64,000 nt of DNA from Platerodrilus igneus (lineage: Eukaryota > Arthropoda > Insecta > Coleoptera > Lycidae): positions 2,542,001 through 2,606,000 of the forward strand of contig JARFIW010000663.1 of NCBI GenBank assembly GCA_036346225.1, given 5' to 3'. Made by a program: the position numbers and the translations under genes. Each line of letters begins with the position of its first letter. Position 1 is the first letter of the stretch. The notes below the pieces were generated by a model. The model saw nothing but the letters and a program-made list of their open reading frames with translations. It had not been told where the DNA came from and ran no database searches. Positions 16,480 through 57,573 of the stretch are shown here, in pieces.

Positions 16480-17084
16480 GTGCATAGTGTACAGGAAGAA
16501 GAACATACTTAAGAAGAGTTTGAAGCTCCCGAAGAAACCCAAAATCAAGGAAACGGCCAAATACAAGAAGTACTAGGAATACCTAAAAAAGGAAGAAATG
16601 AGAAAATGTTGATGGTAATAAGTGGTATCCCGACACGGCCGACTGCTTGAAAAATGGCAGTGAGCATTTTTCACAAAAATTACGCCCTCGTTCGGATGAG
16701 AGGTTAAATGGAGGTCCCGTGTGTGAGTGTTGTCATGCACGCTAGAGATCCCTACCTTGCCTAGAACGGCAAGGGTTCGGCAAAATTTTAAATTTCCAGG
16801 CAACAAAAAACTCGCCCCCTGGCCAATGTAGTACCTTCTGGTGGAGCATTGGAAATGTAAATGAACGGTAATAAGTGGTAAAGAAATGCCAATGTAACTT
16901 AACAGAGAATGGGTGAGAAGCACTGTGGAGTGAAGATACAAGACGATGGTACTTGTAAACCTGTAAACGAAAGAGCAAAAAGGAAACTGAAAAAGAGGTG
17001 CAGGTGCAGAAATTTACCAGTTTAATTGCGATAAAGTTTCAGGCGATGGCAGACAAAAGATTATTTAACAATTTCTAGACAGGC
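16480..17084 (+). pseudogene. DUF7869-type arthropod gene, N-terminal remnant
   Basis: Short blocks read IPKKGRNEKM before the SINE, and after it KRKLKKRCRC followed in another frame by FNCDKVSGDGRQKII and QFLDRL. In DUF7869-type proteins (name from memory) the N-terminal half has a basic KxCRxKC block followed by a segment resembling RQxIFxxFW, which these remains resemble. The frame is broken by the SINE, by several indels and then by a Gypsy insertion at 17,085. Downstream parts of the same gene lie at 21,931-22,492 and 28,749-29,500. Confidence 0.5.
16626..16866 (+). mobile_element. tRNA-derived SINE, 5'-truncated
   Basis: The copy begins inside the tRNA-like head (tatcccgacacgg, the end of a B-box region) and continues with the family body (gagcatttttcacaaaaatta, ctcgttcggatgagaggt, gttcggcaaaattt) to the tail aatgtagtacc...ggagcattggaaa. 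It is flanked by a perfect duplication ggtaataagtgg at 16,614-16,625 and 16,867-16,878, as produced by target-primed reverse transcription. It interrupts the DUF7869-type remnant. Confidence 0.85.
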
Positions 17085-23930: not shown

Positions 23931-24960
23931 GCCGTCAGAAGGAAAACAGAGCGAGATCGGGGCATTAGGATAGTCCGGATCGGCAGGTTTCAGATCTTAA
24001 ACATGCCAAATGGATTTGTGACCGGAAGGATCAGTAAGTTCATAGGTCCAGGGAGAAACGACTTTAGAAATTTGAAAAGGACCAATGAATGTAGGAGCAA
24101 GTTTAGCGTTAAAATGACGTGAAGCGTCGGACAGAGCGAAATTACGGCGCTAAACAGAATTGCCTAGTTGTAAGAGACAGGACGACGGCGGAGATTATAG
24201 CGGCAGAAAGTGTTTTGAGAATGTGGGAACGGATACTTTTAAAGTGTTCAGGATTTGGTGAAGGATGCTCGGGATCAGGAATATACATGTTGTTTATTTC
24301 GGACAGCTGCCCGAAATAATCGCCGGAAAAGATACGCTCACGATCAAATAGAGCGAAGAACGGAGTGATTTCGTGTTTGGAGATGCGCATCGCACAAGAG
24401 ATTTTTGGGAGGTTCGCATCTCAATGACGTTGGTCGACGCGTACGTAGGATGCAAGCATGGTCTTAAGAAAGAGGTTAACACATTCAGCAGAATTGGCTT
24501 GGGAATGGTATCGGGCGATGAAAAAGATTTTGGAGTGATAACGGGCACACAAAGAGGCAAGATGATGTCTACGGGATTGTACACCCTTATCCGTGATAAC
24601 GTTTTGCGGGACACCGAAAATAAGGAAGATTTGATTTTCGAGGATTTTGGTGACGGCCTGTGTAGTGGCTGTACGCAGAGGAAAGAAAAGAAAGAACTTA
24701 GTAAAATAATCAACCACTACAAGGATATAGGAGTGACCACAAGTAGAACGAGAAAGAGGACCTACTATGTCGCAGGAAAGGATTTGCCAGGGATAGAATG
24801 GTTTGGCCCTAGAAGCAAATAAACTAGTAGGAGGTAACTGTTCAACTTTGTGAGCAGCACAAATCGGACAACGTCGGATGTAACAAGCGACGTCAGCTCT
24901 GAGACAGGGCTAGTAATATTTTTGAAGGAGATGAGCAGAAGTTTTGGTCACACCACAATG
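23931..24960 (-). pseudogene. Gypsy-A integrase, broken
   Basis: On the minus strand a zinc-binding region reads YFRHCGVTKT then CPICAAHK (the HHCC module), followed by CDIVGPLSRSTCGHSY and VVDYFTKFFLFFPL (around the first catalytic Asp) and IFGVPQNVITDKGVQ (the second Asp in ITDKG). The third catalytic region around RYHSQANSAECVN retains the Glu-equivalent block. Stops and frame changes occur near 24,780 and 24,420. The enzyme would insert the cDNA into the genome. Confidence 0.75.
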
Positions 24961-24991
24961 ACGGAAGTAGGAGGATCGTGATGGAAGGATA

Positions 24992-25500
24992 TCAGATTTT
25001 ACGCTGTTCGGAAGGTACAACGATTTTCCAATCGTCCAGAGAATCGGCAGCAATAAAAGTTTTATGACGACGGAAAAGGATATTGCCCACCACGGACCAG
25101 GAGGGATAACGTTTAGCGGAGTTAGCAGCTTTTCGGATCATGGTGTTGTACCAGGGATCAGGAGTAGGAAGAGTGATTTCGAGAGATGTAACCGTAGAAA
25201 TAGAAAATGTTTCAAGGACGGGAACAGAATGAGAAAGGGCATCAGGATCAACATGATCTTTGCTCTCACGGTGAATAATGGTAAAGTCATATTGCTGAAG
25301 GCGGAGGGACCAACGGGCTAGACGACCGGAAGGACTTTGGAGTTTATTAAGCCAAATGAGGGAATGATGATCAGTGATAACGGAAAAATGGGAACCCTCG
25401 ACGTAAGGACGAAACTTCTCAATCGCCCACATCACTGCCAAACACTCCTTCTCAGTAATTGAGTAGTTGCGCTCAGCTTGGTGAGTGAACGACTGATATA
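24992..25500 (-). pseudogene. Gypsy-A RNase H domain
   Basis: The minus frame shows AVMWAIEKFRPYVEG, VITDHHSLIWL and GRLARWSLRLQQYDF, then HRESKDHVDPDALSH: the usual end of a Ty3/Gypsy RNase H (E in the WAIEKFR helix, TDHHSL Asp, and the DALSH connection segment). The expected upstream DAS motif lies in a different frame around 25,530-25,590. Confidence 0.82.
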
Positions 25501-25625
25501 GCTTACGACCTTCTCGCTGTCGGGATGGGATTGGATAAAGATGGCACCTAAACCAAAGTGAGAGGCGTCAGTTGGGATGGTGAAGGGTGAGGTAAAGTCA
25601 GGGCAGGAAAGGATGGGGGCAGAAA

Positions 25626-26234
25626 TTAGGTGTTGTTTAAGGGAAATGTAGGCAGATTGACAATCGGGGGTCCAAAGGAAAGGGGCGTTTTTGCGGGACT
25701 AGTTAGAAAGCGGAGATGTGAGGGTGGCAAAATGCGGGATGAAACGACGGTACCCACTGGCCATGCCAATCGGTTGCCGGAATGCAGTAACGTAGAAGGG
25801 AGGAGGCCTTTTAAGGATTGCAGAAACTTTATCGGGGTCAACAAGGAGACGACTCCGGTTAACGATGTAACCAAGATAGCGGGGCTCAGGAAGGCATAAA
25901 TGACACTTATCTTGACGAAAAGTAAGGCCAGCATGTAAGAGACGAGAAAGAACTAGATCAAGAATTCGGAGGTGTTCTTCGAATGAAGGAGTGGCAATGA
26001 TGATATCATCGATGTAGGCGAAGCAGAATGGTTCCAGGTCAGAACCGATGCCCTGATCGATAAGACGTTGGAAGGTGGCAGGGGAATTATTGAGGCCGAA
26101 TGGCATACGACAGAATTGAAATAACCTCGATGAGGGACGGTGAAGGCAGTGAAGGGTTTGGATTCGGGCGACAGAGGGATTTGATAATAGGCGGAACGGA
26201 TATCTAGTGAGGAGGGCATCGCGGAGCCGATCAA
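25626..26234 (-). pseudogene. Gypsy-A reverse transcriptase
   Basis: The minus strand gives SLDIRSAYYQIPL (catalytic Asp), MPFGLNNSPATFQRL, CFAYIDDIIIATPSFEEHL (the YIDD active site) and PRYLGYIVNRSRL, the standard block order of a Ty3/Gypsy reverse transcriptase. A frameshift near 26,100 separates the first block from the rest; a second change near 25,730 leads to the RNase H. All catalytic Asp residues visible are retained, so decay is recent enough to keep motifs but not the frame. Confidence 0.88.
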
Positions 26235-26939
26235 GGATGGTAGAAATGTACGGAAGAGGATATGCGTCTTTTTGGGTGCCTTGGTTGAGATGTAGATGAG
26301 AACGTAAAGTGAGAAGCAGAAGAAATTAGGCCATTAGAGGTGAGGACAGTATTTGAAGTATGATTCGAAGACCTATTAGAAGTAGAATGACAGTTGAGAC
26401 AGTTGTGGCGAGTAACTGCCTTATGCCCGCAACCATAGCAATGAAGTACTTTAGAACGAGTACAACGTGTCGAAACATGACCAAGTTTGTCGCAATTAAA
26501 GCACACGACCTGACGAATAGAAGTAGAACTAGGAAGAAGAACAGTAGAACGTACGGAAGAAGTATCGGGTCTACCCGTATGGTAGGAGAAATCTTAACAA
26601 CTCGGCCATGTGAAGTACAAGTATTTTGCTCGATAGTAGTAACAAGACTTGGTTCAGCAGTAACAGTATGTTGTTCTTGACTAGGTGATACGGAATTATC
26701 GGCCAGAAACTTTGCCGGTTCTAATTTCAAACATTCGTCCTTTAACTCTTGTTAGGAGCGGACGGTAGGCAAACGGGCTCGATAGAATGGAGCGAGGTTA
26801 CAAAGCATAATGGACAATTGATCGTCCTCCTTGAAAGATCCATACCACTGGAACACATGAAATAATCAGTAATACCTTCTGATGACTCCTGCTGTCTATT
26901 GTAGATACCATCATACGGTCTTGTCGCTATATCAGTCAT
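26231..26939 (-). pseudogene. Gypsy-A gag with zinc knuckles
   Basis: Begins with an ATG-led frame (MTDIATRPYDG) at 26,939 and, after frame changes, reaches CFNCDKLGHVSTRC, a CX2CX4HX4C knuckle, then CYGCGHKAVTRHNC, a second Cys/His cluster typical of arthropod Gypsy gag. Gag packages the element RNA. At about 700 bp it is short for a gag, so part of the capsid region is deleted. It directly precedes the pol frames. Confidence 0.75.
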
Positions 26940-28748: not shown

Positions 28749-29500
28749 ATAGGAAAAAGAAGGTTAGAAAAAGACAGCGCTAGAATCAAATAAAGTGTCA
28801 GTGTATGCAGAAAACGTACATAAGGTACTTACATGCACAGACGTTAAAGTATTTACAGCTTACTATAAAACTAAATTAAAGGTTCATAACTGGTCAGTTT
28901 AGAACCTAGCCACAACTGATAAAACACTGCATCTGGCATGAAGGAAATGGTGACTTAGACAGCAATGTATTTGCAACAATGTTGGTTAGATTCCTGACTA
29001 AAGAAACTGAGATTAATCCAGGATTTGGTGATCTCGTCATTTGGAGTGATGGCTTTACATACCAAAGCAGGTATGAACTTGTCTCAAATGCCCTTCTATA
29101 CTTTGCCATAAAATCAAAAATTAATACGTATCAGGTGAGCCACACCCACATGAAGCTGAGCCATACCCACATGGAAGTGGACAGCTTGCACAATGCTATT
29201 GAGAAGAAACTAAGGAAACACGAACGCTTTGTGCCAGCAGAGAAAGTCAGATCCATTTAGGAGGTCCGAATACATCCTAAACCATATTTTGTGGAAAGCC
29301 TGACGTATAAAGACTGTTTGTTATTCTGATGGGTATTACAAGAGCATCCATACTGGCTCAAAAAAAAGTGACCCCATGTGTGACTGATTTGAGTTGTTTA
29401 AGTACAAGCCTGATGGTCACAATTTGTTCAAATTGAATTTCAAAGATGATTGGAAAGATTGTCCAAAAAGGAAAAATCAATTAAAGAAGTGAACGAATGG
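28749..29500 (+). pseudogene. DUF7869-type arthropod gene, C-terminal remnant
   Basis: Blocks in order: AYYKTKLKVHNW, FGDLVIWSDGFTYQSR, VSNALLYFAIKSK, SHTHMEVDSLHNAIEKKL, VRTHPKPYFVESL (in a shifted frame) and FKLNFKDDWKDCPKRK. These match the C-terminal domain of the same arthropod family (typically YYKTKLAVHN, SDGCTYQNR, HTQMEVDSVHSTIE). A small in-frame tandem duplication gives SHTHMKLSHTHME. Stops and indels are numerous. Its continuity with the part at 21,931-22,492 shows that the minus Gypsy-A landed inside this gene. Confidence 0.75.
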
Positions 29501-31312: not shown

Positions 31313-31585
31313 CTCTACACTTGACTTTCTCATGCTCCACACGAAGATAGTACATTGGCTATAAAGCAAATTTTTTTAACTGGAAATTTTGAATTTTGGC
31401 GAACCATTACAGTTCTAAGCACTTACGCGCGCGCGCGCGCGACCTGCATTTTACTTCATCCAAACGAGAACGTATTTTTGTGAAAAATGCTCGCCTTACA
31501 TTTTCAAGTGGTTCATGTCGGAATCGAACCCGGGATATCGGTATTAGTAGTCATACACAAACCTATCTAACCCACGGCGCCGCCT
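31313..31585 (-). mobile_element. tRNA-derived SINE, minus, nearly full length
   Basis: On the minus strand the head reads ccgtgggttagataggt (A-box-like) and gggttcgattccgac (B box), followed by the family body and the tail ending ggagcatgagaaagtcaagtg. It is flanked by ggagatcatcat (31,301-31,312) and ggaaatcatcat (31,586-31,597), a 12-bp duplication with one difference. A (CG)n run near 31,429-31,442 has expanded within it. It separates gag from the protease region of Gypsy-M. Confidence 0.88.
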
Positions 31586-31865: not shown

Positions 31866-32366
31866 TTACCTAAAAAATTTTAAATTCTGCCAAACCCTTG
31901 CTGCTCCAAGCAAGTGCTTTACAACACTCACACATTGTGTGGTGTCCTTCAGTTGTTCACGTGGCGAGGTGTACTGATGTTGATAAAGAACCATCCACCA
32001 AAGAATGCTCCGCGAAGTTATACGAGCAGTTGACGAAACCATGCCAACATTTTGAATAACAACTGACAGAAAGACTTCATCCGACGGTACTCCGATGTGG
32101 CTGACACCGTGGATCAGACAGGTTCGCGTATGACTGCTGATTCCAAGGTGACCCTTGAAAAATGTTAGGCGACCATTTTCATAAAAATACACCCTCGTTC
32201 GGATGAGAGGTAAAATATAGGTCCCGTGTTAGAGTGCTGTCAAGCACGACAAAAATTTCTATCTCACTTGAAACAGCGAGGGTTCGGCAAGATTCAAAAT
32301 TTCTAGCTAAAAACTCGTTACCTGGTCTATGTAGTACCTACGGGTGCAGCATTGGAAAATCAAATG
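31866..32366. mobile_element. SINE composite: minus tail piece plus a plus-strand copy
   Basis: At 31,866-31,921 there is a minus-oriented piece of the SINE body (tctgccaaacccttg). At about 32,104-32,366 there is a plus copy: a degenerate tRNA-like head (accgtggatcagacaggtt) that lacks the B box, then ccctcgttcggatgagaggt, gagggttcggcaag and the tail atgtagtacc...gcattggaaaatc. The ~180 bp between them is unassigned. The plus copy ends at the exact point where the duplicated Gypsy-M segment starts. Confidence 0.65.
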
Positions 32367-32381
32367 TAGGAGTAGTCGGAT

Positions 32382-33130
32382 GTGTTGCCGGTCAATAGTG
32401 GTCGATTACGAAAAACCGGAGTAATCAAGCATGGAATCGATACAAGAGTTACCCGACTAATAAGGCAGCAGCCGAGAAGATTTCCACTGACCAAACACGC
32501 GGAGGCCAAGAAAATCATTGGAAATATGGAGGGGCAAGGAGTGATTAAGCACTTTGATATCCCTTGGGCATTGCCTGTTGCGTTTGTAAAAAAGGAAGAA
32601 CGGGTCAATAAGCTTTTGTGTAGACTAAATACGATTAAATAACGTTATCTAAAAGATAGATACCCACTTTTTGGTGTTAACGACACCCTAGATATACTTT
32701 CAGGGTCGCGATGATTATTGACCTTGGAATTACAGAGTGACTACTTGCAAATGGATATAAGACCAAAAAGATCTGGAAAAGACTGTTTTCACTATTGGTA
32801 CAGGCCTATGCAATTTATAGTCATGCCCTTTGGGCTCTGCAACGCTTGGACTACGTGATCGTAATGGGGAAGTCATTCGGAGAAGACTTAAGACATTTAA
32901 AAAAAGCGTTTCGAAGACTGAGAGAAGCCGCTCTGAAACTGAGTCCAAAAAAGTGTCACCTACCGGACGAAGAGGTAAAATACCTAGATAACGTAGTTTC
33001 ATGGAACGGAGTCAGGCCAGACCCAAAAAAGGTTAAGGTGATACAAGAGTGGCACACGTCTGAGGACAAACATCAGCCACGCAGCTTTCTGGGGTTGTGC
33101 ACATACTGTAAAATATTCGTTCCGGATTTT
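32382..33130 (+). pseudogene. Gypsy-M reverse transcriptase, unit 1
   Basis: Blocks: HGIDTRVTRLIRQQPRRFPL, GVIKHFDIPWALPVAFVKK, then after frame breaks LDYVIVMGKSFGEDL, LKLSPKKCHLPDEEVKYL and RSFLGLCTYCKIFVPDF. The order is that of a Ty3/Gypsy polymerase. The YxDD box is eroded to LDYV, so the enzyme cannot be active. A block around 32,650-32,780 (the first catalytic Asp region) has two frame changes. Confidence 0.8.
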
Positions 33131-33650
33131 TGAATATTGCCAAGCCGTTGGTCAGGTTGACTGAAAAAGGGCGTGATTACATTTGGGACAAAGATTTTCA
33201 AAATGCGTTTCAACAGTTAAGACATTTGTTGAAAACAGATCCGATGTTAAGTTACCAGCAGTCGGAAGGCAAATTCATCTTGGATACGGACGCAAGTAAT
33301 ATCACCGTCGGAAGTTTACTATCCCAGATGCAAAACTGGCAAGAGAGGGTCATTGGCTACTTTAGTAAGGTACTCTCGAAACCAAAACGGAATTACTGCA
33401 TTACAAACAGGAAACTATTGGCTATAGTGAAATACGTAAAGCACTTTTATAAGTGAAAATCAATCACGCAACCCTGAGATCAAGTCTTCAGATAGATAAA
33501 AAAACTGCAGGAGTATGATTTCGACACGAAACATCCTGCTGGTACTAGGTGGTGTCTTCCAAAAGCCGAGTGCAAAGGTTTTAGGATATATTACATAATA
33601 GAACCTCGAAATGGGAAACCGAAAAGCTACAACCTGCGAAGCTCCACTGA
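33130..33650 (+). pseudogene. Gypsy-M RNase H, unit 1
   Basis: MNIAKPLVRLTEKGRDYIW, FILDTDASNITVGSLLSQ and IGYFSKVLSKPKRNY give the RNase H tether and the DTDAS catalytic motif. After 33,456 the frame breaks; LQEYDFDTKHPAG, the usual end of the domain, follows in another frame. The integrase zinc-binding module that normally comes next is missing, so a deletion joins RNase H directly to the integrase core. Confidence 0.75.
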
Positions 33651-33654
33651 AAGA

Positions 33655-34500
33655 GTGGCGATCTATATTGCAGCTCCACTTCGTGAGACAGATTTCGGGA
33701 ATAAACACGTAGTGGTGGCTATCGATTATTTTACGAATAGTACACAGGCGTGTGCTACATTAAACCAAAAAGCTGTAATCATCGCTGACATGCTGTTGAA
33801 AGAACTGTTCTGCCTTTTTGAAGTTTCTATAAAGTGCACGTCGATTAGAGCAGAAAGTTTGAATCAGTGTTATTTCAAGAAGCGTTCCGGTTGCCGGGGA
33901 TAATAAAGAACTAGATAACACCATTACGCTCACTATCAGATGCAGTAGTAAAGCGCATGTACTGCACATGCTGCACATAGTTTTCCAAGGTGTTTTCCCA
34001 ATATCAGAAAGACTGGAACCAATACTTACATTTATTTTTATTGGTCTATCGATGGATAAACACTTGTATGTGCTGAGTTGCGACACATGATAAGTCTACC
34101 ACGTGACCTTGAGTTGGAGTGTAAGCCTGGAGGAGACATCGGGGTAAAATTACGCCGAGAAGCTCAAGCGCAAGATGAATGACATCCATCATGTGGTTAT
34201 GAATAATATTCGGATAGCCGGTGACTGGATGAAGATCAGATACGACATTAAAGTGCGGGAATCTGGTTTTCAAGAGGGTAACGGCATATGGTTATACCAT
34301 TCACGATGAAAGCGTGTACTGTCGCCAAAGAGACAAAGGCATTGGTATAGTCCATACGAAGTTGTGAAAAGGATCAACCACGTGCTATATCGGATTTGTA
34401 AGCTCCCACAAGGAAGAATAATAGTGGTGCACATTAAGCGATTATCACCCTACGATACTGATGACGCCGGTAATGCCGAAGATTGGCCAAGCAGTGAGAG
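33655..34500 (+). pseudogene. Gypsy-M integrase core and C-terminus, unit 1
   Basis: YIAAPLRETDFGNKHVVVAI then DYFTNSTQA match the first catalytic region; the second Asp region is unclear. Later, ISLPRDLELECKPGGD and, near 34,380-34,480, RICKLPQGRIIVVHIKRL and SPYDTDDAGN match the integrase C-terminus that ends such pol polyproteins. The frame stops about 40 bp before the ATG of the macro-domain ORF. Confidence 0.7.
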
Positions 34501-34559
34501 GAATAAACAGTTATGCTGATAAGAATGAACACGAGTCTGGATTCGACTACGAATGCTTC

Positions 34560-35037
34560 ATGTCTCTGTACAGCGGCACAAACAAAGTGAGATATGGGGT
34601 CATGTAAAAGACTTAAGATAATCTATTCGATGTGCAATCGGAGCACCCCCTGGCACACTGCGTAGCGGCGAACCTGCTCGAATTTGGTAATCTGGATCAA
34701 CTTCGCCGACAATAACCAAAAATTGGAAAATCCCCACGGTTTAACGAACGACATCGTGGCATCTATTACCTGGTGACTAAGCCATTACCATCTGGTAGAT
34801 CGAATTACCAGGATGTGGAGAATGCTAGTAGACCTCAAGGGACAGAGAATCAAATTCGAAAGCAAATAATTGGCCATACCTAAGATCGGTTGTGGTATCG
34901 ATAGATTGAACTAGAGGGTGGTACGAAATATGCTAAAGGTACTGTTCTAGAGAGCCAGGGTCCAGATCCTTGCGTGTGTTTACAATCCAAATGATACGGC
35001 GCCCGCACTGGGGTGCGTTGATTGCTACTTCCATTAA
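34560..35037 (+). pseudogene. Macro-domain ORF (TARG1/OARD1-like), Gypsy-M unit 1
   Basis: An ATG at 34,560 starts MSLYSGTNKVRYGVM; the frame then reads NLFDVQSEHPLAHCV, the typical N-terminal strand of TARG1-type macro domains. A ~30-bp deletion has removed the glycine-rich ligand loop. In other frames FNERHRGIYYLVTKPLPSG, LAIPKIGCGIDRLN and NPNDTAPAL follow, up to a TAA at 35,035. The Lys in YYLVTK and the Asp in GCGID occupy the positions of the catalytic pair known in human TARG1. Stops at 34,605 (TAA) and 34,948 (TAG) are shared with unit 2. Macro domains of this type remove ADP-ribose from proteins; a role in the element is inference. Confidence 0.75.
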
Positions 35038-35142
35038 CATGAAAACTGCAGAAATGGTTCCGACTGTCTTTGCTGCTACAGAGATTTCCAACGCCCCAGT
35101 CACTGAGTGTTTTGGTACAGAACCGCTTTAGAAGGAGAGCAG

Positions 35143-35396
35143 TGTAATGAGATGTCACATAGTTTTCTAAAAAAAAAAAAAGAAAAATGCTGCGTTCCAA
35201 AGGGTTTAAAACCAGGATTAAGAAAGTACGATGAGGAGAAGATATTTTCGAATCAGAGTTTTCTTAGACTGAAAGAAAAAATTACTAGACCGATAGTTAT
35301 ATCAATCTATGTATTTTTTTACTTTTATCAAAAATAATCTTCAAAACTGGTCAAAAGTAAACACGTGGTACGACTTAGGTTACCTTCCGCTGTTTG
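35143..35396 (+). mobile_element. Gypsy-M LTR start, unit 1 (truncated by the duplication)
   Basis: After a purine tract (gaaggagagcag) the sequence tgtaatgagatgtcacatag begins the 3' LTR. It matches unit 2 at 38,063 onward (tgtaatgaagtgtcacatag) through ttaccttccgctgtttg, where unit 2 starts. Short Gypsy LTRs often begin TGTAATG. The 3' end of the LTR is not defined because no 5' LTR remains. Confidence 0.6.
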
Positions 35397-35399
35397 TAG

Positions 35400-36480
35400 G
35401 AGTACTCGGATGTGTTTCCGGTCAATAGCGGTCGATTAGAAAAAACCTGAGTAATTAAGCATGGAATAGATACAAGAGATACCCGGCTAATAAGACAGCA
35501 GCCGAGAAGATTCCCACTGACCAAACATGAGGAGGCCAAGAATATAATTGGAAATATGGAGGAGCAAGGAATGATTAAGCACTCTGATATCCCTTGGGCA
35601 TTGCCTGTTGCGCTTGTAAAAAAGGAAGAACGGGTCAATAAGATTTTGTGTAGACTACATACGATTAAATAACTTGATCAAAAAAATAGGTTCCCGCTCT
35701 AGGTGTTGACGAACCGTAAATACACTTTCAGGATTGCGATGATTTTGACCTTGGAATTAAAGAGTGACTACTTGCAAATGGATATAGGACCCACAAGATC
35801 TGAAGAAGATTGCTTTCACTATTGGTTCACTATGCAATTTATACTCATGATATTAGGGTTCTGCAACGCTTGTGTCGTATACTTGGACAACGTAATCGTG
35901 ATTGGGAAGTCGTTCGGAGAAGAGTTAGGACGTTTAAAAAAAGTGTTTTGAAGACTGTGATAAGCCACTCTGAAGCAGAGTCCAAAAAAGTGTCACCTAC
36001 CGGACGAAGAGGTAAAATACCTAGGAATACGTAGTTTCTTGCAACAGAGTCAGGCCAGACCCAGAAAAAGCTAAGGTGATACAAGAGTGGCAGACTTCCG
36101 AGGACAAACATCAGCTACGCAACGTTCTGGGGTTGTGCACTTACTCTAAAATAAACGTTCCAGATTTGTGAATATTGTCAAGCCTTTGGCCAAGTTAACT
36201 GAAGAAGGGCATGATTACATTTGGGACAAAGATTTCCAAAATGCGTTTCAACACTTAAGACTTTTGTGGAAAACAGATCCGATCTTAAGTTACCCGCGGC
36301 CGGAAGGCAAATTTGTCTTGGGTACGGACTCAAGGAATATCACCGCCGGAAGTTTGCTATCCCAGATGCAAAACGGGCAAGAGAGGTCATTGATTACTCT
36401 AGTAAGGTACTTTCGAAACCGCAACGGAATTACTGGTACAAACAGGAAACTTTTGGCTACAGTGAAACCAATCACGCAAG
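35400..36480 (+). pseudogene. Gypsy-M reverse transcriptase and RNase H, unit 2
   Basis: Colinear with unit 1. The polymerase box reads CVVYLDNVIVIGKSFGEEL: the second Asp of YLDD is Asn, which would inactivate it. RNase H reads VKPLAKLTEEGHDYIWDKDF and LGTDSRNITAGSLLSQ, where the catalytic DAS is altered to DSR. Many frames are broken at positions different from unit 1, so the units have decayed independently since duplication. Confidence 0.75.
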
Positions 36481-36499
36481 CCTGAAGTGGCGTTACATA

Positions 36500-37400
36500 A
36501 TGTGACCTCGAAATGGGAAACGGAAAATCTTCAATGAGGCACTACAACGTACGAAGCTCCCCTGAAAGAGTGTCAATCTACATTGGCGGTCCATTTTGTG
36601 AGACAGATTTCGGGAATAAATACGAATTGGTGGTTATCGACTGTTTTACGAATATTACAGAGGCATATGCTATACCAAACCAAGAAGCCGTATCCATGGC
36701 TGAGGTGCTGTTGAAAGAACTGTTCTGCCTTTTTGAAGTCCCTATGAAGTGCAAGCCGATTAGGGCAGAAAGCTTGAGCCAGTATTATTTCAAGAAGTAT
36801 TCCGGTTGCCGGGGATAATAAAGAACCGGATAATACCATTACGTCCACTATCAGATGCAGTGGTAAAGCACATGTAACGCACATTCTGCACGTAGTTTTC
36901 CAAGGTGTTCTCCCAATATCAGAGAGACTGGAACCAATATTTACATTTATTTTTATTAACCTATCGATCTTCAGTTCATGAAATCACTGGATAAACATTT
37001 GGATGCGCTGTGCTGCGACACAAGATACGTCTACCACGTGACCTTGAGTTAGCGTGTAAACCCGGAGGAGACATAGTGGGCGTGCCCTTAGGAATAATAT
37101 CCAGATAACGGGCGATAGGATGAAGAACAGATTCGACATTAAGGCGCAGTAATCTGGTGTTCAAGAGGGCAACGGCATGTGGTTAAATAATTCCCAACGA
37201 AAGCGTGGACTGTCCCCAAAGATACAAGGACATTGGGAGAGTCCATACGAAGTTGTGAAAAGGATCAACTATGTGATATATCGGATTTGTAAGCTCTAAA
37301 AAGGTAGAATAATAGTGGTGCACATTAACCAGTTATCACCCTGCAACAGTGATAACGCCGGCAATGCCGAAGATGGCTAAGCAGTAAGAGGAGCAAACAA
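36500..37400 (+). pseudogene. Gypsy-M integrase, unit 2
   Basis: The frame at 36,513-36,818 reads RVSIYIGGPFCETDFGNKYE, LVVIDCFTNITEAYAIPNQE, ELFCLFEVPMKC, the first half of an integrase core without its zinc-binding module. The block corresponding to the second catalytic Asp is altered (RAESLSQYYF where an S/D-Q-G-x-N motif is usual). The C-terminal VVHIN and LSP pieces recur near 37,315-37,340. Confidence 0.7.
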
Positions 37401-37449
37401 TAATGCTGATAAGAATGAATACGAGTCTGGATTTAGCTACGATTGCACC

Positions 37450-37959
37450 ATGTCTCTGTATAGCGACACAAGCAAAGCGAGCTTTAGGGTTGTGTAAAAG
37501 ACTCAAGATGATCTATTCGATTTGTCATCGGAACACCCCCGGGCACACTGCGTGCTGCGAACCTTGGTATGTCGGGAGGATTTGCTCAAGAGTTTAAAAG
37601 TAAATTTGGTGGTCTGAATCAACATCTCCGACAACAGCCAGAGTTTAGACAAGCCATACGGTTTAACGACCGACATCGTCGCATCTATTACCTGGTGATT
37701 AAGCAACTACCATCTGGTAGATCGAATTACTAGGATGTGGAGGACGCTAGTAGACGCTAAGGACCATATAATCAAATTTGGAAGCAAGAAATTGGCCATA
37801 CCTAAGATTGGTTGTGGTTTTGATAGATTGGACTGGAGGGTGGTAAGAAATATGCTAGAGGTGCTGTTCTAGAGAGCCAGGATCCAGATCTTTGCGTGTG
37901 GTTACAATCCAAATGATACGGTGCCTGTACTGAGGTGCGTTAATTGCTATTTCCATTAA
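37450..37959 (+). pseudogene. Macro-domain ORF (TARG1/OARD1-like), Gypsy-M unit 2
   Basis: The best-preserved copy. From ATG 37,450: MSLYSDTSKASF, then after TAA (37,495) DDLFDLSSEHPRAHCVLRTL; a frame change leads to GMSGGFAQEFKSKFGG (ligand-binding glycine loop), AIRFNDRHRRIYYLVIKQ; after another frame change (about 37,731) KKLAIPKIGCGFDRLDW, VVRNMLEVLF, TAG (37,870), RARIQIFACGYNPND and a TAA at 37,957. About 170 codons span the whole unit, close to the ~150 residues of human TARG1. Both TARG1 catalytic positions (Lys after YYLV, Asp in GCGFD) are present. A bacterial or viral macro domain is less likely, since PKIGCGxDxLxW is the TARG1/Poa1-type signature. Confidence 0.82.
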
Positions 37960-38062
37960 CATGAGAACTGCAGAAATGGTTCCGACTGTCTTTGCTGCTA
38001 CAGGGATTTCCAACGCCCCATTGACCGAGTGTTCTGGGACAGAACAGCTTTAGGAGGGGTAG

Positions 38063-38326
38063 TGTAATGAAGTGTCACATAGTTCTCTAAAATTAAACAA
38101 GAAAAATGCTGCCTTCCAAACGGTTTAAAACCAGTATTAAGAAAGTGCGTTCAGGAGAAGATATTTTCGAATTGGAGTTTTCATACACTGGAAAAAATTA
38201 CTATACCCATAGTTGTATCAATCTATGTATTTTTTACAGTTGTCGAAAATATTCTTCAAAATTTGCCAAAAGAAAACACGTGGTAAGACTTGATTACCTT
38301 CCGCTGTTTGAAGTATAGGGTTAGAT
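38063..38326 (+). mobile_element. Gypsy-M LTR start, unit 2
   Basis: Preceded by the purine tract aggaggggtag, it begins tgtaatgaagtgtcacatag and is colinear with unit 1. The sequence continues past 38,326 without a partner, so the true LTR may extend further right. Confidence 0.55.
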
Positions 38327-39654: not shown

Positions 39655-39843
39655 GAAGAAGCGCTGTTGTGGTTTTTTTAAACATAATATCCATAGTAAG
39701 GGTGCATCAGCTTATGAAGAAAAAAAAAGGTAAATAGAAGAAAATGGTCAAGGAAATAGCTTTTAAAAAGAAGTCAGTACTTCCATATCAATTTACTGAA
39801 AGAATTGAGTATTGATTCTATTATTAATGATAATAATGACTGG
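39655..39843 (+). pseudogene. Harbinger transposase N-terminus, left part
   Basis: Starts around MEEALLWFF and in one frame reads HINLLKELSIDSIINDNNDW up to the FB2 insertion. Combined with the right part beyond 43,769 the frame continues in phase (Trp, then RNYLRMD), which shows that FB2 landed inside an open reading frame. Two frame changes are present upstream. Confidence 0.65.
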
Positions 39844-41156
39844 CAGTAGGGTAAAATTGAGAATCCTGGGACCACATTTCCTCCAGCAACCTCATTATCT
39901 CACACATCTGGACCAAATAGTTTTCTTCGACTAGTCATTTCATCTTTCGAGATAAACCTATCTTGTTTGGTATCAATTAATATTAGATTTTTTTCAGCTA
40001 CCCGAATCTCTAGGAATTTTTTAGATAGGGAGCTGCCCCCATTTTAAGAATTTTTACCAACAGCGATTTCTGACCGTCCTTATAAATTTTTTTAACCTTC
40101 GACACATCAAATCAGTCTAGAGTTTTACGCAAAATCCGAATCTGTAAACAGATTTAAAATAGAATCATCCTTTGTCGTTTTACACACATACCCTCTAGCG
40201 AGCATATAAAAGATTATTTTTTGTTTCTTTCGAGATAAATGTACTTTGTTTGGTATCAACTAATATTAGATCTTTCTAGGGAACCCAAATCTGTAAATAG
40301 ATTTTAAATAGGACTACCCCTTACAAACTTACACCCCTATAAAAACCCGAACCTTCCAATTTTTTGTTTCTTTTCAGATAAATATATCTTGTTTGCTATC
40401 AATTAATATTAGATTCTTCTCAGCTACCTGAATTTCTAGGAATTTTTAATAGCATCATCCCCCAGCGTGCTACCCTCATTTTAAGAATTTTTACCAGCAG
40501 CGATTTCTAACCGTCCTTATAAATTTTTTAACCATGCGACACATCAAATTAGTCTAGAATGTTTGATATCAACTAATATTAGATCTATCTAGGGAACTCA
40601 AATCTGTAAATAGATTTTAAATAGGACCACCCCTTACAAAGTTACACCCCTATAAAAACCCAAACCTTCCAATTTTTTGTTTCTTTTAAGATAAATATAT
40701 CTTGTTTGGTATCAATTAATATTAGATTCTTCTCAGCTACCCGAATCTCTAGGAATTTTTTAGATAGCATCATCCCCCAGGGAGCTACCCCCATTTTAAG
40801 AATTTTTACCAACAGCGATTTCTGACCGTCCTTATAAATTTTTTTAACCTTCGACACATCAAATTAGTCTACAATTTTACGCAAAATCCGAATCTGTAAA
40901 CAGATTTAAAATAGAATCATCCCCTTGCCGTTTTACACACATACCCTCTTGCGAGCATATAAAAGATTATTTTTTGTTTCTTTCGAGATAAATGTACCTT
41001 GTTTGGTATCAACTGATATTAGATCTTTCTAGGAACCCAAATCTGTAAATAGATTTTAAATAGGACCACCCCTTACAAAGTTACGCCTTTTAAAGACCCA
41101 AAACTCTAATTTTTGCCCATCTATATTTAACTCCATCTTTAAAACCTTTTTTTCGC

Positions 41157-41383
41157 TACCCAAGACATATGTTTTAGCCGACCATTTCTCGAAAAATCTA
41201 AAACCGCTGAAATTTCTAAAATGCGCGGATTATAATTGTAGTACTTTTTCAAAATAAGCTTTAGCGCTTATAAGAGTTGATCTTATTTTGAAAAAGTACT
41301 AGAATTATAATCCGCCCATTTTAAAAATTCCAGCGGTTTTAGATTTTTCGGGAAATGGTCGGTTAGAGCATATGTCTTGGGTA
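41157..41383. repeat. 227-bp palindrome in the FB2 centre
   Basis: Arms 41,157-41,258 and 41,282-41,383, about 102 bp each, are close inverted copies (tacccaagacatatg at the ends, aaaataag/cttatttt at the loop) around a 23-base loop. It could be a small inverted-repeat transposon or a hairpin-forming inner part of the foldback. The left arm starts in the last bases of the FB2 left arm. Confidence 0.92.
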
Positions 41384-41745
41384 TCATAATTTGAATAAGG
41401 GCCACTATACTTGCGGCCACCTCCCCAATGCTCAACCCGACGGTACTATATTGGGTTTAAACGCGAAAATATAAACGTGCTTTAGATTTAATCTAACTTC
41501 AAAATTAATCGATCCTAAATAAAAATTTAACAAACTACAACAAAAATTAGAAAAAGGTTTGAATAATGGTATCCCTAGCGTTAATTTGGAGTGTGCGTTC
41601 AACAAGACACACGTGAAAGTAAAAGGGGAGGGATCCGTAATACCGGATTGCAGTCGCCAGCTCTGGTTACCGGTGCGACCTGAAGGGTCGTCTTAAAACT
41701 ATCAAAATCTAGCTAACTATAATTAAAAATGGATTCAAATTTCTA
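41384..41745 (-). mobile_element. Retroposon R, minus copy
   Basis: The reverse complement matches the copy in the BEL gag (54,199-54,547) along its length: agctagattttgatagtttta, ccggtattacggatccct, ctagggataccattatt, ttttcgcgtttaaaccca and the end gcattgggga-gtggccgcaagtatag. Its 3' end abuts the palindrome. A clear target duplication is not visible for this copy. Confidence 0.8.
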
Positions 41746-42709
41746 AGCATTCGCCAAATATTTTAATAGTGAATCCAGCTATTTTGTCTGCTCTATAAAT
41801 TTGCAAATTCGTCCTCCCTGATCTAAGTAATTTATTTTATCTTTAGCCTAAATCCATCCCTAACTTTCCCTACCATTCCCTAACTGATTTATATTATAGT
41901 TACATTCTTCACAATTACAATCTTCATTCCTATAAAAATGCTGCCACCAAAAATGGCGGCAGAACGTCAGACATAGCAAATCAAGCTCCAAAAATAAATG
42001 CAAAATAAATATAAAATGTAAATATAAATAAATATATTTATGTAAATAGATATCTAATAAGCATTAAGCATATAGGAGTGCACAAAAAAAAAGCAAAAAG
42101 CATTGCCCAATTTATCAGGTGCATTCGCATAAGCATTATGTCGGCTAGCGTCATTACTCACAAAAACCTGCTCATTAAATTATTTCAAATCTACTTATTA
42201 ATACAAATCAATGCTTATGCGGGTGCAGCCGTCACAATTTTTCTTCTTACCGATAATAATTCCTCCAGTATCCGATCTGGTCGTCTTCTTACTTCTATTA
42301 TATTATATCTTACAGCTAAGGGTAGATGGGTAAGCACAGCTAAAGTTCTGGTCGGTATGCACTAAACGTTCTGGGGGGGATCACAATCACTATCACTTTA
42401 AAGTTCAGGGGGGATGCGCGGTTTCACTCTATTTTATCTTCTTTATTTATCTACTGATTTAAATTAATGAGGGTTTTTGATTTAGTTTGTTATTATTTAC
42501 CTGTTTTGATTTATTCCCGATACTCCGCGCATTTATGGTTTGACAGAAACTGTTTTAGTGGTGTGTGGGTTTGTCGTGCATATTAGATTTTGGTTATAAT
42601 CATAATTAATTAATTATATTTTTTTAAATTTTTTATTATTATTTTTTTAATTTTTCTTTATTACTTTTTTTTATACAGGTTTTGGTTACACCATGCTCAT
42701 GTCTATGTG
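41746..42709. other. FB2 centre, unassigned
   Basis: AT-rich, with a small hairpin at about 41,941-41,962 (ctgccaccaaaaatggcggcag). A minus frame around 42,230-42,290 reads RPDRILEELLSVRRKIV, which is protein-like but unassigned. A plus frame of 95 codons (42,078-42,365) overlaps it. Confidence 0.35.
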
Positions 42710-43765
42710 TTGGGTAGTGAAAAAAAAAGGTTTTAAAGATGGAGTTAAATATAGATGGGCAAAAATTAGAAGTTTGAGTCTTTAAAAGGCGTAACTTTGT
42801 AAGGGGTGGTCCTATTTAAAATCTATTTACAGATTTGGGTTCCCTAGAAAGATCTAATATTAGTTGATACCAAACAAGGTACATTTATCTCGAAAGAAAC
42901 AAAAAATAATCTTTTATATGCTCGCTAGGGGGTATGTGTGTAAAACGGGAAGGGGTGATTTATTTAAAATCTGTTTACAGATTCGGATTCTGCATAAAAT
43001 TCTAGACTAATTTGATGTGTCGTATGGTTAAAAAAAATTATACGGATGGTCAGAAATCGCTGCTGGTAAAAAATCTTAAAATGAGGGTAGCACCCTGGGG
43101 GATGATGCTATTTAAAAAGTTCCTAGAAATTCAGGTAGCTGAGAAGCATCTAATATTAATTGATACTAAACAAGATATATTGATCTTAAGAGAAACAAAA
43201 AATAATCTTTTATTTGTTCGCTAAATAAACAAACAAAAAATTGGAAGGTTCGGGTTTTTATAGGGGTGTAACTTTGTAACGTGTGGTCCTATTTCAAATC
43301 TACAGATTTGGGTTCCCTAGAAAGATCTAATATTAGTTGATACCAAACAAGGTACATTTATCTCGAAAGAAACAAAAAATAATTTTTTATATGCTCGCTA
43401 GAGGGTATGTGTGTAATACGGCAAGGGGTGATCCTATTTTTAATCTGTTTACGGATTCGGATTCTGCGTAAAATTCTAGACTAACTTGATGTGTCGCATG
43501 GTTAAAAAAATTTATAAGGACAGTCAGAAATTGCTACTGGTAAAAATCTTAAAATGAGGGTAGCTCCCTGGGGGATGGTACAATCTGAAAAATTCCTATA
43601 AATTCAGTTAGCTGAGGAAAATCTAATATTAATTGACACCAAACAAGGTACATTTATCTCGAAAGATGAAATGACTAGTCGAAGAAAACTATTTGGTCCA
43701 GATGTGTGAGGAAACGTGGATGCTGGAGGAAATGTGGTCCCAGGATTCTCAATTTTACCCTACTG

Positions 43766-44017
43766 CTGGCGCAATTATTTGCGTATGGACGCTAAGACTT
43801 AAAATCGATTGTTGGAACTGGTAACGCCATACATAAAAAAATATGACACTTGTATGAGAAAAGCTATTTCACCGCACGGAAGGCTTTCGGCAACTTTAAG
43901 GTTCCTCGCTACAGGGAGAAGCTATAAAGACTTGGGAGTTTACGACCATTGTATCTAAATCAAGTTTGAGCAGAATAATTCTTGAAACATTAGGTTTTAA
44001 AAAAGGATTACTTAAAG
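43766..44017 (+). pseudogene. Harbinger transposase N-terminus, right part
   Basis: Reads RNYLRMDAKT, LLELVTPYIKKYDTCMRKAI, SPHGRLSATLRFLATGRSYK, and after a frame change SKSSLSRIILETLGF, the standard start of a Harbinger (HARBI1-like) transposase. The DDE catalytic region that should follow is deleted; the next sequence is the minus-strand second gene. Confidence 0.85.
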
Positions 44018-45120: not shown

Positions 45121-45330
45121 TACTCACTTGTGTAACAAATATCACCCCCCGACACGCCTTTTAGATACTCCATGTAGTTCTAATTCAGCTCGAATTGACC
45201 TCAGAACGGGCCGTTTAAATGTCCATCCTAAATTTCCTTCATTCTCTTTTGCTAACTCATCTTATTTAACTGCCAAAATATGTATACCTCTCTATAAACT
45301 GGAGTTTGACGCGAAATATCCTTTTCGACA

Positions 45331-45617
45331 CCTACATGTGATTTTCCAATGCTCCGCTCGAAGGTACTACATTGGCCAGGAAGCGAATTTTTTTACCAGA
45401 AAAATTTTGAATTTTGCCAAACCCTTGTTGTACCAAGCAAGTTAGGGATCTTTAACGTGCGTGACAACACACACACGGCACCTCCATTTTGCCTCTCATC
45501 TGAACGAGGGTATATTTTTGTGAAAAATGCTCGCCTAATATTTTTCAAGTGAACCGTGTCGGGATTCGAACCCGAAACTTTGGGTGTAGTAGTCACACAC
45601 ATACCAACTACGCCATC
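45331..45617 (-). mobile_element. tRNA-derived SINE, full length
   Basis: The most complete copy of the family. On the minus strand: tggcgtagttgg (A box), cgggttcgaatcccgacacg (B box), then cttgaaaaatattaggcgag, ctcgttcagatgagagg, aagggtttggcaaaattc and the 3' part ccaatgtagtacctt...ggagcattgg. It interrupts the Gypsy-B polymerase/RNase H region. The tRNA-like head cannot be a functional tRNA because the acceptor and anticodon arms do not pair. Confidence 0.92.
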
Positions 45618-54794: not shown

Positions 54795-55914
54795 GTAGTT
54801 TATGTCAAGCTGTGCATCCTATTTATAGATGTAAGCAGTTTCTCGATAAAACCTCTCAAGAAAAATTTGAGGTGGTAAAAGTTAAAAACCTTTGTATTAA
54901 ATGTTTAAATACTTCACATTCGATGAAAAGTTGTAAGTTAGATTGGTCGTGTAGAAAATGTCAACAGCCGCACAATTCGTTACTTCACTTCGATAAACGG
55001 TGTCTCCACGCAGACAAACTCATCGTCAAAAGTCAGCGTCTCCTCGGAGAGCGGCGCCTAAACTTACTTCTACTAGTAGACCCAGTGAAGGCAATCTGTC
55101 GTCGGCGGGTGTGCATGAACAACCTGCCACTAGCTCGTTAATTTCGACGTCATTAGAACATACAACCATGCTATTAGCTACGGCAATGGTGTCGGTGCTA
55201 GATTATACAGGAAAATTGCAACCTGTTCGTGTTATTTTAGATAACGGATCAATGAAAAGTTTTATGACTGAAAGGTGCGGTCAGAAATTAGGTTTAAAGA
55301 AACGGAGAGCCAATGTCACTGTTCAAGGACTTGGCTTGAATTCGTCGTTGATGTCTGGTACACAAACGTATGTAGTCAGCCCCTCGGGAGCAAGGTCTCC
55401 AGCATATGAAACTGATTGTTATATTTTACCTAACATTTGTAATCAACTACCTTCGTCGTCTATAGGGGCCAAGGAATGGTCGCATACTCGAGATTTGGCC
55501 TTAGCTGATCCTAATTTTAATATTCCTGGTAAGATTGACATGCTGTTCGAAACGCAAATCTTTGCTCAGGTTTTGTTGAACGAGTCTCGTTGTGGTGTCG
55601 CTAACGAGCCAGTTGCTATTAAAACAACCTTTGGTTGGGTTTTAACGGGAAAGGTCGTTTCCCCGAATAATTCTATTACGTCGTTGTGTACTTTCGTTGA
55701 GCCCTTAGACAGCGACATTTGTCGATTTTGGGAATTAGAAAATATTCCCTTCAAGAAACACATTTCTCCTGACGAAGAAAAGTGTGAAAAAGAATTTGTG
55801 AAAAATTATAGACGTAACAAGGACGGTCGTTTTGTAGTGTCCTTGCCCTTTAAAATTTCTGAACCCTCATTCGTGGGTACGAGATCGATTTGTGTTAAAA
55901 GATTTTTGTCTTAA
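54795..55914 (+). pseudogene. BEL zinc-finger and aspartic protease
   Basis: Cys/His clusters HPIYRCKQF, NLCIKCLNTSHSMKSC and WSCRKCQQPHNSLLH are the CCHC-type region between gag and protease. After a frame change, PVRVILDNGSMKSFMTERC takes the place of the protease active site, where a D-S/T-G is usual: the second residue is Asn. GAKEWSHTRDLALADPNFN, IDMLFE and TTFGWVLTGK follow, the typical post-protease spacer of BEL elements. Confidence 0.85.
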
Positions 55915-55923
55915 GAACGTCGT

Positions 55924-56957
55924 TTGCTAAAAAATCCTGAAATGTATTCGGGTTATAAAAAATTTATGGAGGATTATTTGAAAAGCGGTCACATGGTTCA
56001 AGTGGAATATCCTGAAAATTCGTCGGTTCATGAGAAAATGTATTACATTCCCCATCATGCTGTACATAGGCGTGATAGCACTACCACCAAATTGCGTGTG
56101 GTTTTCGATGCTTCGTGTCCGGATCAATCTGGAAATTCCTTAAATGATAGCTTGGCTATTGGCCCTCCTCTGCAAAAGACATTGCAGTTTTGTTACTGCA
56201 TTTACGTGTGCATCTTATCGTAATTACAGCTGATATTAAACAAATGTATCGGCAGATTTTGGTTAAAGATACTCATCGTGATTATCAACATATCGTCTGG
56301 AGATTTTCTCCGTCAGATCCTATTATGGACTTTAAATTAAATACTGTGACTTATGGAGTTTCGTCGTCGCGTTTTTTGGCCTTGCGTACTGTTCAAGAAC
56401 TGGCAAGGTTAGAATCGATTAATTTCCCTTTCGCGTCATCGGTATTGGCGAGCGATACCTATGTTGATGACTTAGTCACTGGATGCAATTCGATTGAAGC
56501 TGCTAATCAATTAATTTGGTGAATTGAATAGTATTTGCTCTAGTGGTGGTTTTCAATTAAGAAAATGGAATAGTAATTGCCCGGAAGTGTGATGTCTAAC
56601 TTGAAGGAGTCGCGGTTCAGTTCGGAAGCAATTACATTTCAAGATAAAGATAGTGGTTCAATAAAAATTTTGGACTTTTCGTGGCACGCTCTTACAGATG
56701 TATTTTTATACAACTTAGACGTCGAAGAGCGCACTTGCACTAAGCGTAATATATTGTCAGATATCGCAAAATTTTTTGATCCTCTCGGTTTGATAGCGCC
56801 TTTAATACTTTTCGTTAAACGTTTAGTTCAAGATCTTTGGCTTTTAGGCCTCGGTTGGGACCAAGAACCTCCATGCAAGTCGTACAAAAATGGAAACATT
56901 TTTTGGGTGAATTGCCCGCTGTTTCGAATATTGAATTTCGCGTCGCATCGTATGTAA
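55924..56957 (+). pseudogene. BEL reverse transcriptase
   Basis: YYIPHHAVHRRDSTTTKLRV, VFDAS, SLNDSLAIGPPLQ; then, after a frame change near 56,190, ADIKQMYRQILVKDTHRDYQ, VTYGVSSSRFLALRTVQELA and SDTYVDDLVTGCNSIEAANQ, with an intact YVDD. A stop at 56,520 and another frame change follow before FFDPLGLIAPLILFVKRLVQ, the BEL thumb/connection region. Confidence 0.9.
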
Positions 56958-56970
56958 TAATTTTAAAAAT

Positions 56971-57573
56971 GTGAAGTTGCATGGATTCTGTGATGCTTCT
57001 GAAGCCGGGTATGCAGCTGTCGTCTACTTTCGTTCGTTCGATTTAGAAGGTAATATTACCATATCATTAGTATGCGCAAAATCGAAGGTTGCTCCTACTA
57101 ATCGCGTTTCATTGCACCGTCTCAAATTGTATGCTGCCGTACTCTTGGCAGATTTAGTAGATTTCGTCAAAAATACTTATACAGATAGTTTATCATTTAG
57201 TAATATTTTCGCGTGGTCAGATTCTGCTGTTGTTTTGTCTTGGATTCGGTCTTCCTCGCATAAGTGGAAGACATTTGTTAGCAATCGCATTTCGCATATT
57301 CAAGAACGTATTCCTCCATCTTCGTGGTTTCATATTAAGCCCCAGGATAACCCTGCGGATTGTGCCTCACGTGGACCTTTGGCTTCAGAGTTGGTTCATC
57401 ATCCATTATGGTGGACAGGGCCTTCCTGGTTAGTGCGTCGTAGCGAAGAATGGCCAAAAACGTCGCTGCCAAAACTTATCGACTCATCTCAGATGGACGT
57501 CGAATATCGTACTTTGTCGTTAACAGTCGTTATGATTGAGAATTTCTTAGATTTGTTGTTGGATAAATTTTAA
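56971..57573 (+). pseudogene. BEL RNase H
   Basis: LHGFCDASEAGYAAVVYFR contains the first catalytic Asp (CDAS). In the next block BEL elements usually have an LELC Glu; here the sequence reads SLHRLKLYAAVLLADL, so the catalytic Glu is Lys. FAWSDSAVVLSWI gives the third site and HIKPQDNPADCASRG the fourth. The 200-codon frame is open throughout. Confidence 0.85.

What the first reader, a model, noticed from the sequence alone, without database searches (positions are those of the whole stretch)
34560..37959. A TARG1/OARD1-like macro domain carried by a Gypsy retrotransposon
Between the integrase C-terminus and the LTR, in the position of an env or accessory gene, both tandem units of Gypsy-M contain an ORF relic with the full macro-domain layout: DLFD...SEHPRAHCV, GMSGGFAQEFKSKFGG, YYLVIKQ, PKIGCGFDRLDW. 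The ORF has its own ATG after the pol frame ends. TARG1-type enzymes remove ADP-ribose from acidic residues, and the two residues that act in human TARG1 (Lys and Asp) have counterparts here. Host ADP-ribosylation is an antiviral and anti-transposon layer, so an element that encodes an eraser would be a plausible counter-defence; that role is inference. I do not recall a described Gypsy lineage with such a gene.
Basis: partly seen in the sequence, partly recalled or inferred. Interest (0 to 1): 0.88.

Follow-up and report, generated by a model that had tools for sequence, protein, structure and literature searches.

The report
Macro-domain relic in dead Gypsy retrotransposon
A dead, twice-copied piece of a retrotransposon carries the remains of a gene for an enzyme that removes ADP-ribose tags, which may be an accessory gene the element once used, but whether other copies carry it could not be checked.

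Summary
The macro-domain relic is real. Two separate pieces of the downstream unit hit human TARG1/OARD1 by sequence (E 4.6e-4 and 8.5e-7), well above 500 shuffles, and both units keep counterparts of the two catalytic residues. It lies between the pol end and a purine run followed by an LTR-like start. (2) Gag, protease and a proven LTR pair are absent. (3) The 'own ATG' is followed in frame by a stop in both units and the frame is open upstream, so a Pol-macro fusion is as likely as a separate gene. (4) ADP-ribose-handling domains in retroelements have precedents: macro ORFs in fish endogenous retroviruses, NADAR in an Ectocarpus Gypsy lineage. The decisive test, other copies in the same genome, was asked 29 times and never answered. 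Most likely: an animal-type OARD1 acquired by a Ty3/Gypsy lineage before this copy died (0.55). Counter-defence is inference.

The parts
32374..35394 (+). Unit 1 of the tandem: 5'-truncated Ty3/Gypsy remnant (pol from just before RT, macro relic, LTR-like tail)
   Evidence: 80% and 87% identical to unit 2 in two blastn blocks
35395..38313 (+). Unit 2 of the tandem, head-to-tail with unit 1
32741..33133 (+). Unit 1, C-terminal part of reverse transcriptase (decayed)
   Evidence: RVT_1 E 0.0048, below cut-off
33112..33456 (+). Unit 1, RNase H domain of pol
   Evidence: RT_RNaseH_2 E 8e-25
36150..36485 (+). Unit 2, RNase H domain of pol
   Evidence: RT_RNaseH_2 E 8.4e-9
36501..36818 (+). Unit 2, integrase core (decayed)
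   Evidence: rve E 0.0033, below cut-off
37300..37377 (+). Unit 2, end of pol (VVHINQLSP), a typical Ty3 integrase C-terminus by recall
   Evidence: label recalled, no tool hit
37381..37494 (+). Unit 2, spacer and leader between pol and macro; same frame as the pol end, with stops at 37378 and 37495; holds the in-frame ATG at 37450
37498..37554 (+). Unit 2 macro piece A (DLFD...AHCV)
   Evidence: weak alone: best 22.3 bits
37569..37715 (+). Unit 2 macro piece B (MSGGFAQEFKSKFGG...YYLVIK), in another frame than A
   Evidence: human OARD1 E 4.6e-4; 35.4 bits
37741..37869 (+). Unit 2 macro piece C (AIPKIGCGFDRLDW...)
   Evidence: human OARD1 E 8.5e-7; 43.5 bits
37873..37956 (+). Unit 2 macro piece D (last-strand-like IQIFACGYNPND), after a stop shared by both units at 37870/34948
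   Evidence: similarity judged by eye
34560..34604 (+).
34617..34667 (+). Unit 1 macro piece A
   Evidence: judged by eye
34680..34781 (+). Unit 1 macro piece B, without the glycine-loop stretch
   Evidence: 25.8 bits; (32-base gap)
34870..34947 (+). Unit 1 macro piece C
   Evidence: 29.3 bits
38052..38313 (+). Unit 2 purine run and LTR-like tail starting TGTAATG at 38063
   Evidence: LTR reading inferred from the run and TG start
35130..35394 (+). Unit 1 purine run and LTR-like tail starting TGTAATG at 35143
   Evidence: 86% identical to the unit 2 tail

Best explanation
A Ty3/Gypsy element lineage acquired an animal-type OARD1/TARG1 macro domain between the integrase end and the 3' LTR. One copy died, lost gag and its 5' part, and was duplicated head-to-tail; both halves have since decayed. 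While alive, the domain would have been made either as a C-terminal extension of Pol or from its own start. By TARG1 chemistry (recalled) it would have removed ADP-ribose from acidic side chains, and possibly from DNA bases, on host factors or on the element's particle or cDNA, easing host ADP-ribosylation-based restriction or assisting integration. Shown: family identity, position, counterparts of both catalytic residues, shared lesions and the duplication. Inferred: that the element lineage carried it, that it was active, and what it acted on.
For: Two TARG1 hits from separate pieces in collinear order; shuffles far lower. The macro lies inside the duplicated unit between the pol end and a purine run plus TG start, a place where LTR elements carry extra genes (recalled). 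In unit 2 the pol end, spacer, leader and piece A share one frame, and in unit 1 the spacer frame is open for 60 codons (41 open codons occur at 2482 of 20000 random places of this window). Piece B is animal-type: all 120 listed OARD1 homologues hit (median 33.7 bits) against 12 of 80 viral ones (median 20.0). Precedents: macro ORFs in teleost ERVs (passage) and NADAR in an Ectocarpus Gypsy lineage (passage).
Against: Only one independent case: shared stops in pol and macro and no significant codon-position bias between units. No intact or second-locus copy was seen, because the genome could not be searched. Searches with relic pieces or readings found nothing. No gag, protease or proven LTR pair. 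In unit 1 the spacer lies in another frame than the pol end. An open spacer of that size is luck at about 12% of places, and sharing a frame about one in three. Pieces A and C do not favour an animal over a viral source.
Confidence: 0.55

Rival explanations
1. One-time capture: a host OARD1 copy (read-through, recombination or retrocopy) was joined to this one Gypsy copy and never spread; it has decayed with it.
For: Only one independent locus is known; both units come from one ancestor that carried shared stops. Piece B is animal-type, as a host gene would be.
Against: The relic sits just between the pol end and the LTR-like start, with an open spacer in the pol frame in unit 2. The top animal matches of unit 2 are only 33-50% identical, whereas even a limpet OARD1 is 67% identical to the human core; that suits a long separate history, though decay alone may explain it. 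Insertion scars (poly-A, target-site repeats) were not tested.
Confidence: 0.28
2. Host locus with nearby Gypsy debris: the macro belonged to a host gene next to a truncated Gypsy, and a segmental tandem duplication copied both, making them look like one element.
For: The units are a local tandem duplication that does not begin at an LTR, abutted on the left by a dispersed repeat.
Against: An LTR-like start with a purine run follows the macro, so element-like sequence encloses it on both sides, if that tail is an LTR. No other OARD1-core-like piece is in the window.
Confidence: 0.12
3. Element gene with a housekeeping rather than anti-defence role (a rival on function, not on origin): the macro domain helps integration or cDNA repair by clearing PARP1-made ADP-ribose at nicks.
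For: Its place next to integrase, possibly in one reading frame with it.
Against: No functional data; it cannot be separated from counter-defence by sequence.
Confidence: 0.2

Closest known systems
Animal OARD1/TARG1 (C6orf130), ADP-ribose glycohydrolase
   Same: Sequence family; catalytic Lys and Asp counterparts; KFGG and YYL signatures
   Different: Broken by stops and frame shifts; altered glycine loop (MSGGFA for MGAGIA); sits in a retrotransposon remnant
Teleost Epsilon-like endogenous retroviruses with macro-domain ORFs (Basta et al. 2009, as cited in PMC4977317)
   Same: A retroelement with an extra macro-domain ORF (passage)
   Different: Retroviruses of fish, not Ty3/Gypsy; class of macro domain not seen by me (original paper not held)
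Ectocarpus Gypsy lineage with NADAR domain in Pol (PMC12477816)
   Same: Ty3/Gypsy with a built-in ADP-ribose-handling domain, found in all families of one lineage (passage)
   Different: [quoted passage not shown] the paper suggests possible horizontal acquisition, hits being almost only bacterial; brown alga
TARG1-type macro ORFs in viral contigs of IMG/VR (80 loci kept of 92), DarG-like by recall
   Same: Same macro subfamily, small ORFs in contigs classed as viral
   Different: No RNase H like the window's at E 1 or better, RT and IN only at chance level; piece B differs from theirs

Membership tests
TARG1/OARD1-type macro domain | Sequence similarity to TARG1 above chance | tested here: met
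TARG1/OARD1-type macro domain | Catalytic Lys (K84) and Asp (D125) counterparts (numbering recalled) | tested here: met
   Present in both units in the alignments
TARG1/OARD1-type macro domain | Intact coding sequence | tested here: not met
   Stops and frame shifts
TARG1/OARD1-type macro domain | ADP-ribose hydrolase activity | not testable with these tools
   No assay; the copy is broken
Ty3/Gypsy LTR retrotransposon | RT-RNase H-integrase order with Ty3-type domains | tested here: met
   RNase H strong, RT and IN below cut-off
Ty3/Gypsy LTR retrotransposon | Pair of LTRs, primer site, gag | tested here: not met
   units start in pol, one LTR-like tail each; the two tails (86% identical) might be a pair around unit 2, unproven
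Gypsy lineage with a macro gene | Several independent copies with the macro at the same place | not tested
   The genome search unanswered in 29 tries; the two units are not independent
Gypsy lineage with a macro gene | Purifying selection on the macro reading frame | tested here: inconclusive
   differences between units by codon position 1,2,3 are 4,2,2 (A), 14,10,7 (B), 6,6,9 (C), 2,1,0 (D): no sign of selection since duplication; earlier selection not testable

The most novel reading that the evidence does not exclude
An animal Ty3/Gypsy lineage carries a TARG1-type ADP-ribose eraser, fused to or following Pol, captured from a host OARD1 and used against ADP-ribosylation-based restriction, parallel to but independent of NADAR in brown-algal Gypsy and macro ORFs in fish ERVs.
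Probability: 0.3. Interest if true: 0.75.

Novelty: new variant of a known kind. Interest (0 to 1): 0.48.

Why it matters
If the macro is a stable gene of the lineage, ADP-ribose-handling domains would have been recruited at least three times by reverse-transcribing elements (fish ERVs, brown-algal Gypsy, and this one). That would point to ADP-ribosylation as a recurrent obstacle or need in the life of retroelements, which is testable with intact copies. If it is a single capture, it is a curiosity.

Tried and rejected
Rejected: chance match (500 shuffles of the unit 2 macro stretch). Rejected: the two units as independent support. Doubted: the ATG at 34560/37450 as the gene's start (stop after 15 codons in both units). 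Thought less likely: a viral or bacterial TARG1 as the source, by piece B. Caveats: the two sets were collected by different queries (human core fragments; piece C patterns), pieces A and C do not separate them, and piece C has its best match among the viral ORFs (51.6 against 48.9 bits). Led nowhere: viral-contig scans with the RNase H piece, pieces C and B, the RNase H alignment and the B alignment; protein searches with single-frame readings; Rfam and tRNA scans of the window; literature searches, whose listings gave only the two precedents named. Listings were partial for (20 of 359 papers; 10 of 19).

Full report
What is there. The window (37% G+C; no Rfam family at gathering score and no tRNA found) is rich in retroelement debris. 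At 32374-38313 lie two head-to-tail units of about 3 kb that are 87% and 80% identical in two blastn blocks. Each starts just before the reverse transcriptase (by eye) and runs through RNase H and integrase to a macro-domain relic and an LTR-like tail. Pfam finds Ty3-type RNase H in both (8e-25 and 8.4e-9). RT (0.0048, unit 1 piece) and integrase core (0.0033, unit 2 piece) are below their cut-offs, and the RT N-terminal piece gave no family.

The macro relic. In unit 2, piece B (37569-37715) hits five solved chains, all human OARD1/C6orf130 (best E 4.6e-4). Piece C (37741-37869) hits the same five (best E 8.5e-7), then a macro-domain protein at 0.024 and an RNase III inhibitor at 1.6. tblastn of the OARD1 core against the whole window gives 35.4 and 43.5 bits in unit 2 and 25.8 and 29.3 bits in unit 1, against at most 19.6 and 20.8 bits in 500 dinucleotide shuffles of the unit 2 macro stretch and 20.8 bits elsewhere in the window. 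The two catalytic residues of TARG1 (K84 and D125, numbering recalled) have counterparts in both units. Unit 1 has lost the glycine-loop stretch (32-base gap). The Pfam Macro model reaches only 13.5 bits on piece C (cut-off 22) and nothing on the other four macro pieces tried, as may be expected for fragments.

One case, not two. Of 22 stop positions listed in the pol frames of either unit, 6 are shared (32640/35670, 32712/35740, 33131/36169, 33475/36483, 33901/36816, 33904/36819; frames were set by the homologous pieces, so some may follow a shared frame shift). Of 7 distinct stop positions in the macro stretch 3 are shared (34605/37495, 34948/37870, and 35035/37957, which may be the natural end). 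Differences between the units at codon positions 1, 2, 3 are 4, 2, 2 (macro A), 14, 10, 7 (B), 6, 6, 9 (C), 2, 1, 0 (D); in pol 6, 5, 10 (RT-N), 10, 9, 14 (RT-C), 8, 14, 12 (RNase H), 13, 14, 13 (integrase core), 9, 12, 9 and 14, 13, 17 (two further integrase stretches). The RT pieces lean to position 3, but the pol total (60, 67, 75, my sum) is not far from even. The duplication therefore most likely copied an element that was already dead, and nothing here measures selection while it lived. A defective family that was moved by others could share stops too; this was not tested.

Position and reading frame. The macro follows the end of pol and precedes a purine run (38052-38059; 35130-35139) and TGTAATG (38063; 35143), which look like a polypurine tract and LTR start (this reading rests on recalled features). 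There is no gag or protease in the units by eye and no proven LTR pair. The tails of the two units match to within a few bases of the point where unit 1 runs directly into the pol of unit 2, so the tails (86% identical) might be the two LTRs of unit 2 with the stretch between LTR and RT deleted; this is unproven. The left end of unit 1 abuts a dispersed repeat with copies at 16646, 45328 and 31315. In unit 2 the pol end, the spacer, this leader and piece A lie in one frame, interrupted by stops. In unit 1 the spacer frame is open for 60 codons, but it is not the frame of the pol end. 41 open codons occur by chance at 2482 of 20000 random places in the window, so the hint of a Pol-macro fusion is modest.

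Relatives. Of 385 candidates in the protein database 355 were homologues of the human core; 120 are listed, and those with a name are mammals, reptiles, birds, amphibians, fishes and a limpet. Piece B hits all 120 of these (median 33.7 bits) and 12 of 80 viral TARG1-type ORFs (median 20.0). Piece C hits 112 of 120 (median 41.6, best 48.9) and 80 of 80 viral (median 39.1, best 51.6). Piece A hits 104 of 120 (median 17.7) and 53 of 80 (median 18.9). I read this as an animal origin on the strength of piece B alone, with the caveat that the two sets were collected by different queries. The viral ORFs come from 80 loci kept of 92 found in IMG/VR. None of the 80 loci shows RNase H like the window's at E 1 or better; the RT and IN pieces had 2 and 3 matches at E 0.16 or worse. 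Scans with relic pieces and with alignments of RNase H and piece B found no related element in viral contigs. Protein searches with single-frame relic readings found nothing (11 candidates, none scoring; no candidate). They need three exact five-residue words and exclude long Pol fusions by length, so they are weak evidence of absence.

Literature. Seven searches (listings only, partial) gave no Gypsy element with an OARD1 or macro gene. Two precedents turned up, of which I read passages only. PMC4977317 states that some teleost Epsilon-like endogenous retroviruses include extra ORFs, for example for CNPase or macro-domain proteins, citing Basta et al. 2009, which is not held. PMC12477816 reports a highly conserved NADAR domain in Pol of one Ectocarpus Gypsy lineage. 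For counter-defence against ADP-ribosylation in general, PMC11481870 (passages) describes DarG macrodomains reversing DarT; the phage antitoxin mimic there works by binding DarT, so it is no example of an eraser.

Judgement. The relic is a true TARG1-type macro domain inside Gypsy remnant sequence. That the Gypsy lineage owned it is the best reading (0.55) because of its place between pol and an LTR-like start. A one-time capture (0.28) and a host locus beside debris (0.12) remain open. The rival about a repair role concerns function, not origin, and overlaps with the first. The test that would decide, other copies in the same genome, was requested 29 times and not answered.

Noticed in passing
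54997-57573 (+): BEL/Pao-type element remnant: Pao retrotransposon peptidase A17 at 56935-57573 (E 5.5e-24) and an aspartyl protease piece at 54997-55914 (E 3.9e-5).
   Followed up: partly
24421-26593 (-): A second Ty3-type element on the minus strand: integrase core (1.9e-10), RNase H (7.2e-25) and a borderline zinc knuckle.
   Followed up: partly
32150-32374: Dispersed repeat of about 220 bases that ends within about 10 bases of where unit 1 of the tandem begins; further copies at 16646-16863, 45328-45549 (minus) and, partial, 31315-31405 (minus). Why it coincides with the unit boundary is unexplained.
   Followed up: partly
39843-43766: Large inverted repeat structure of about 3.9 kb whose arms hold several repeated families; 21 arm pairs listed, 74-98% complementary.
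   Followed up: no
L001-L080: TARG1-type macro ORFs (140-185 aa from stop to stop among the 30 printed) are common in viral contigs (92 stretches found, 80 kept).
   Followed up: partly
28910-29260 (+): ORF with a weak DUF7869 match (E 0.0015, below cut-off).
   Followed up: no
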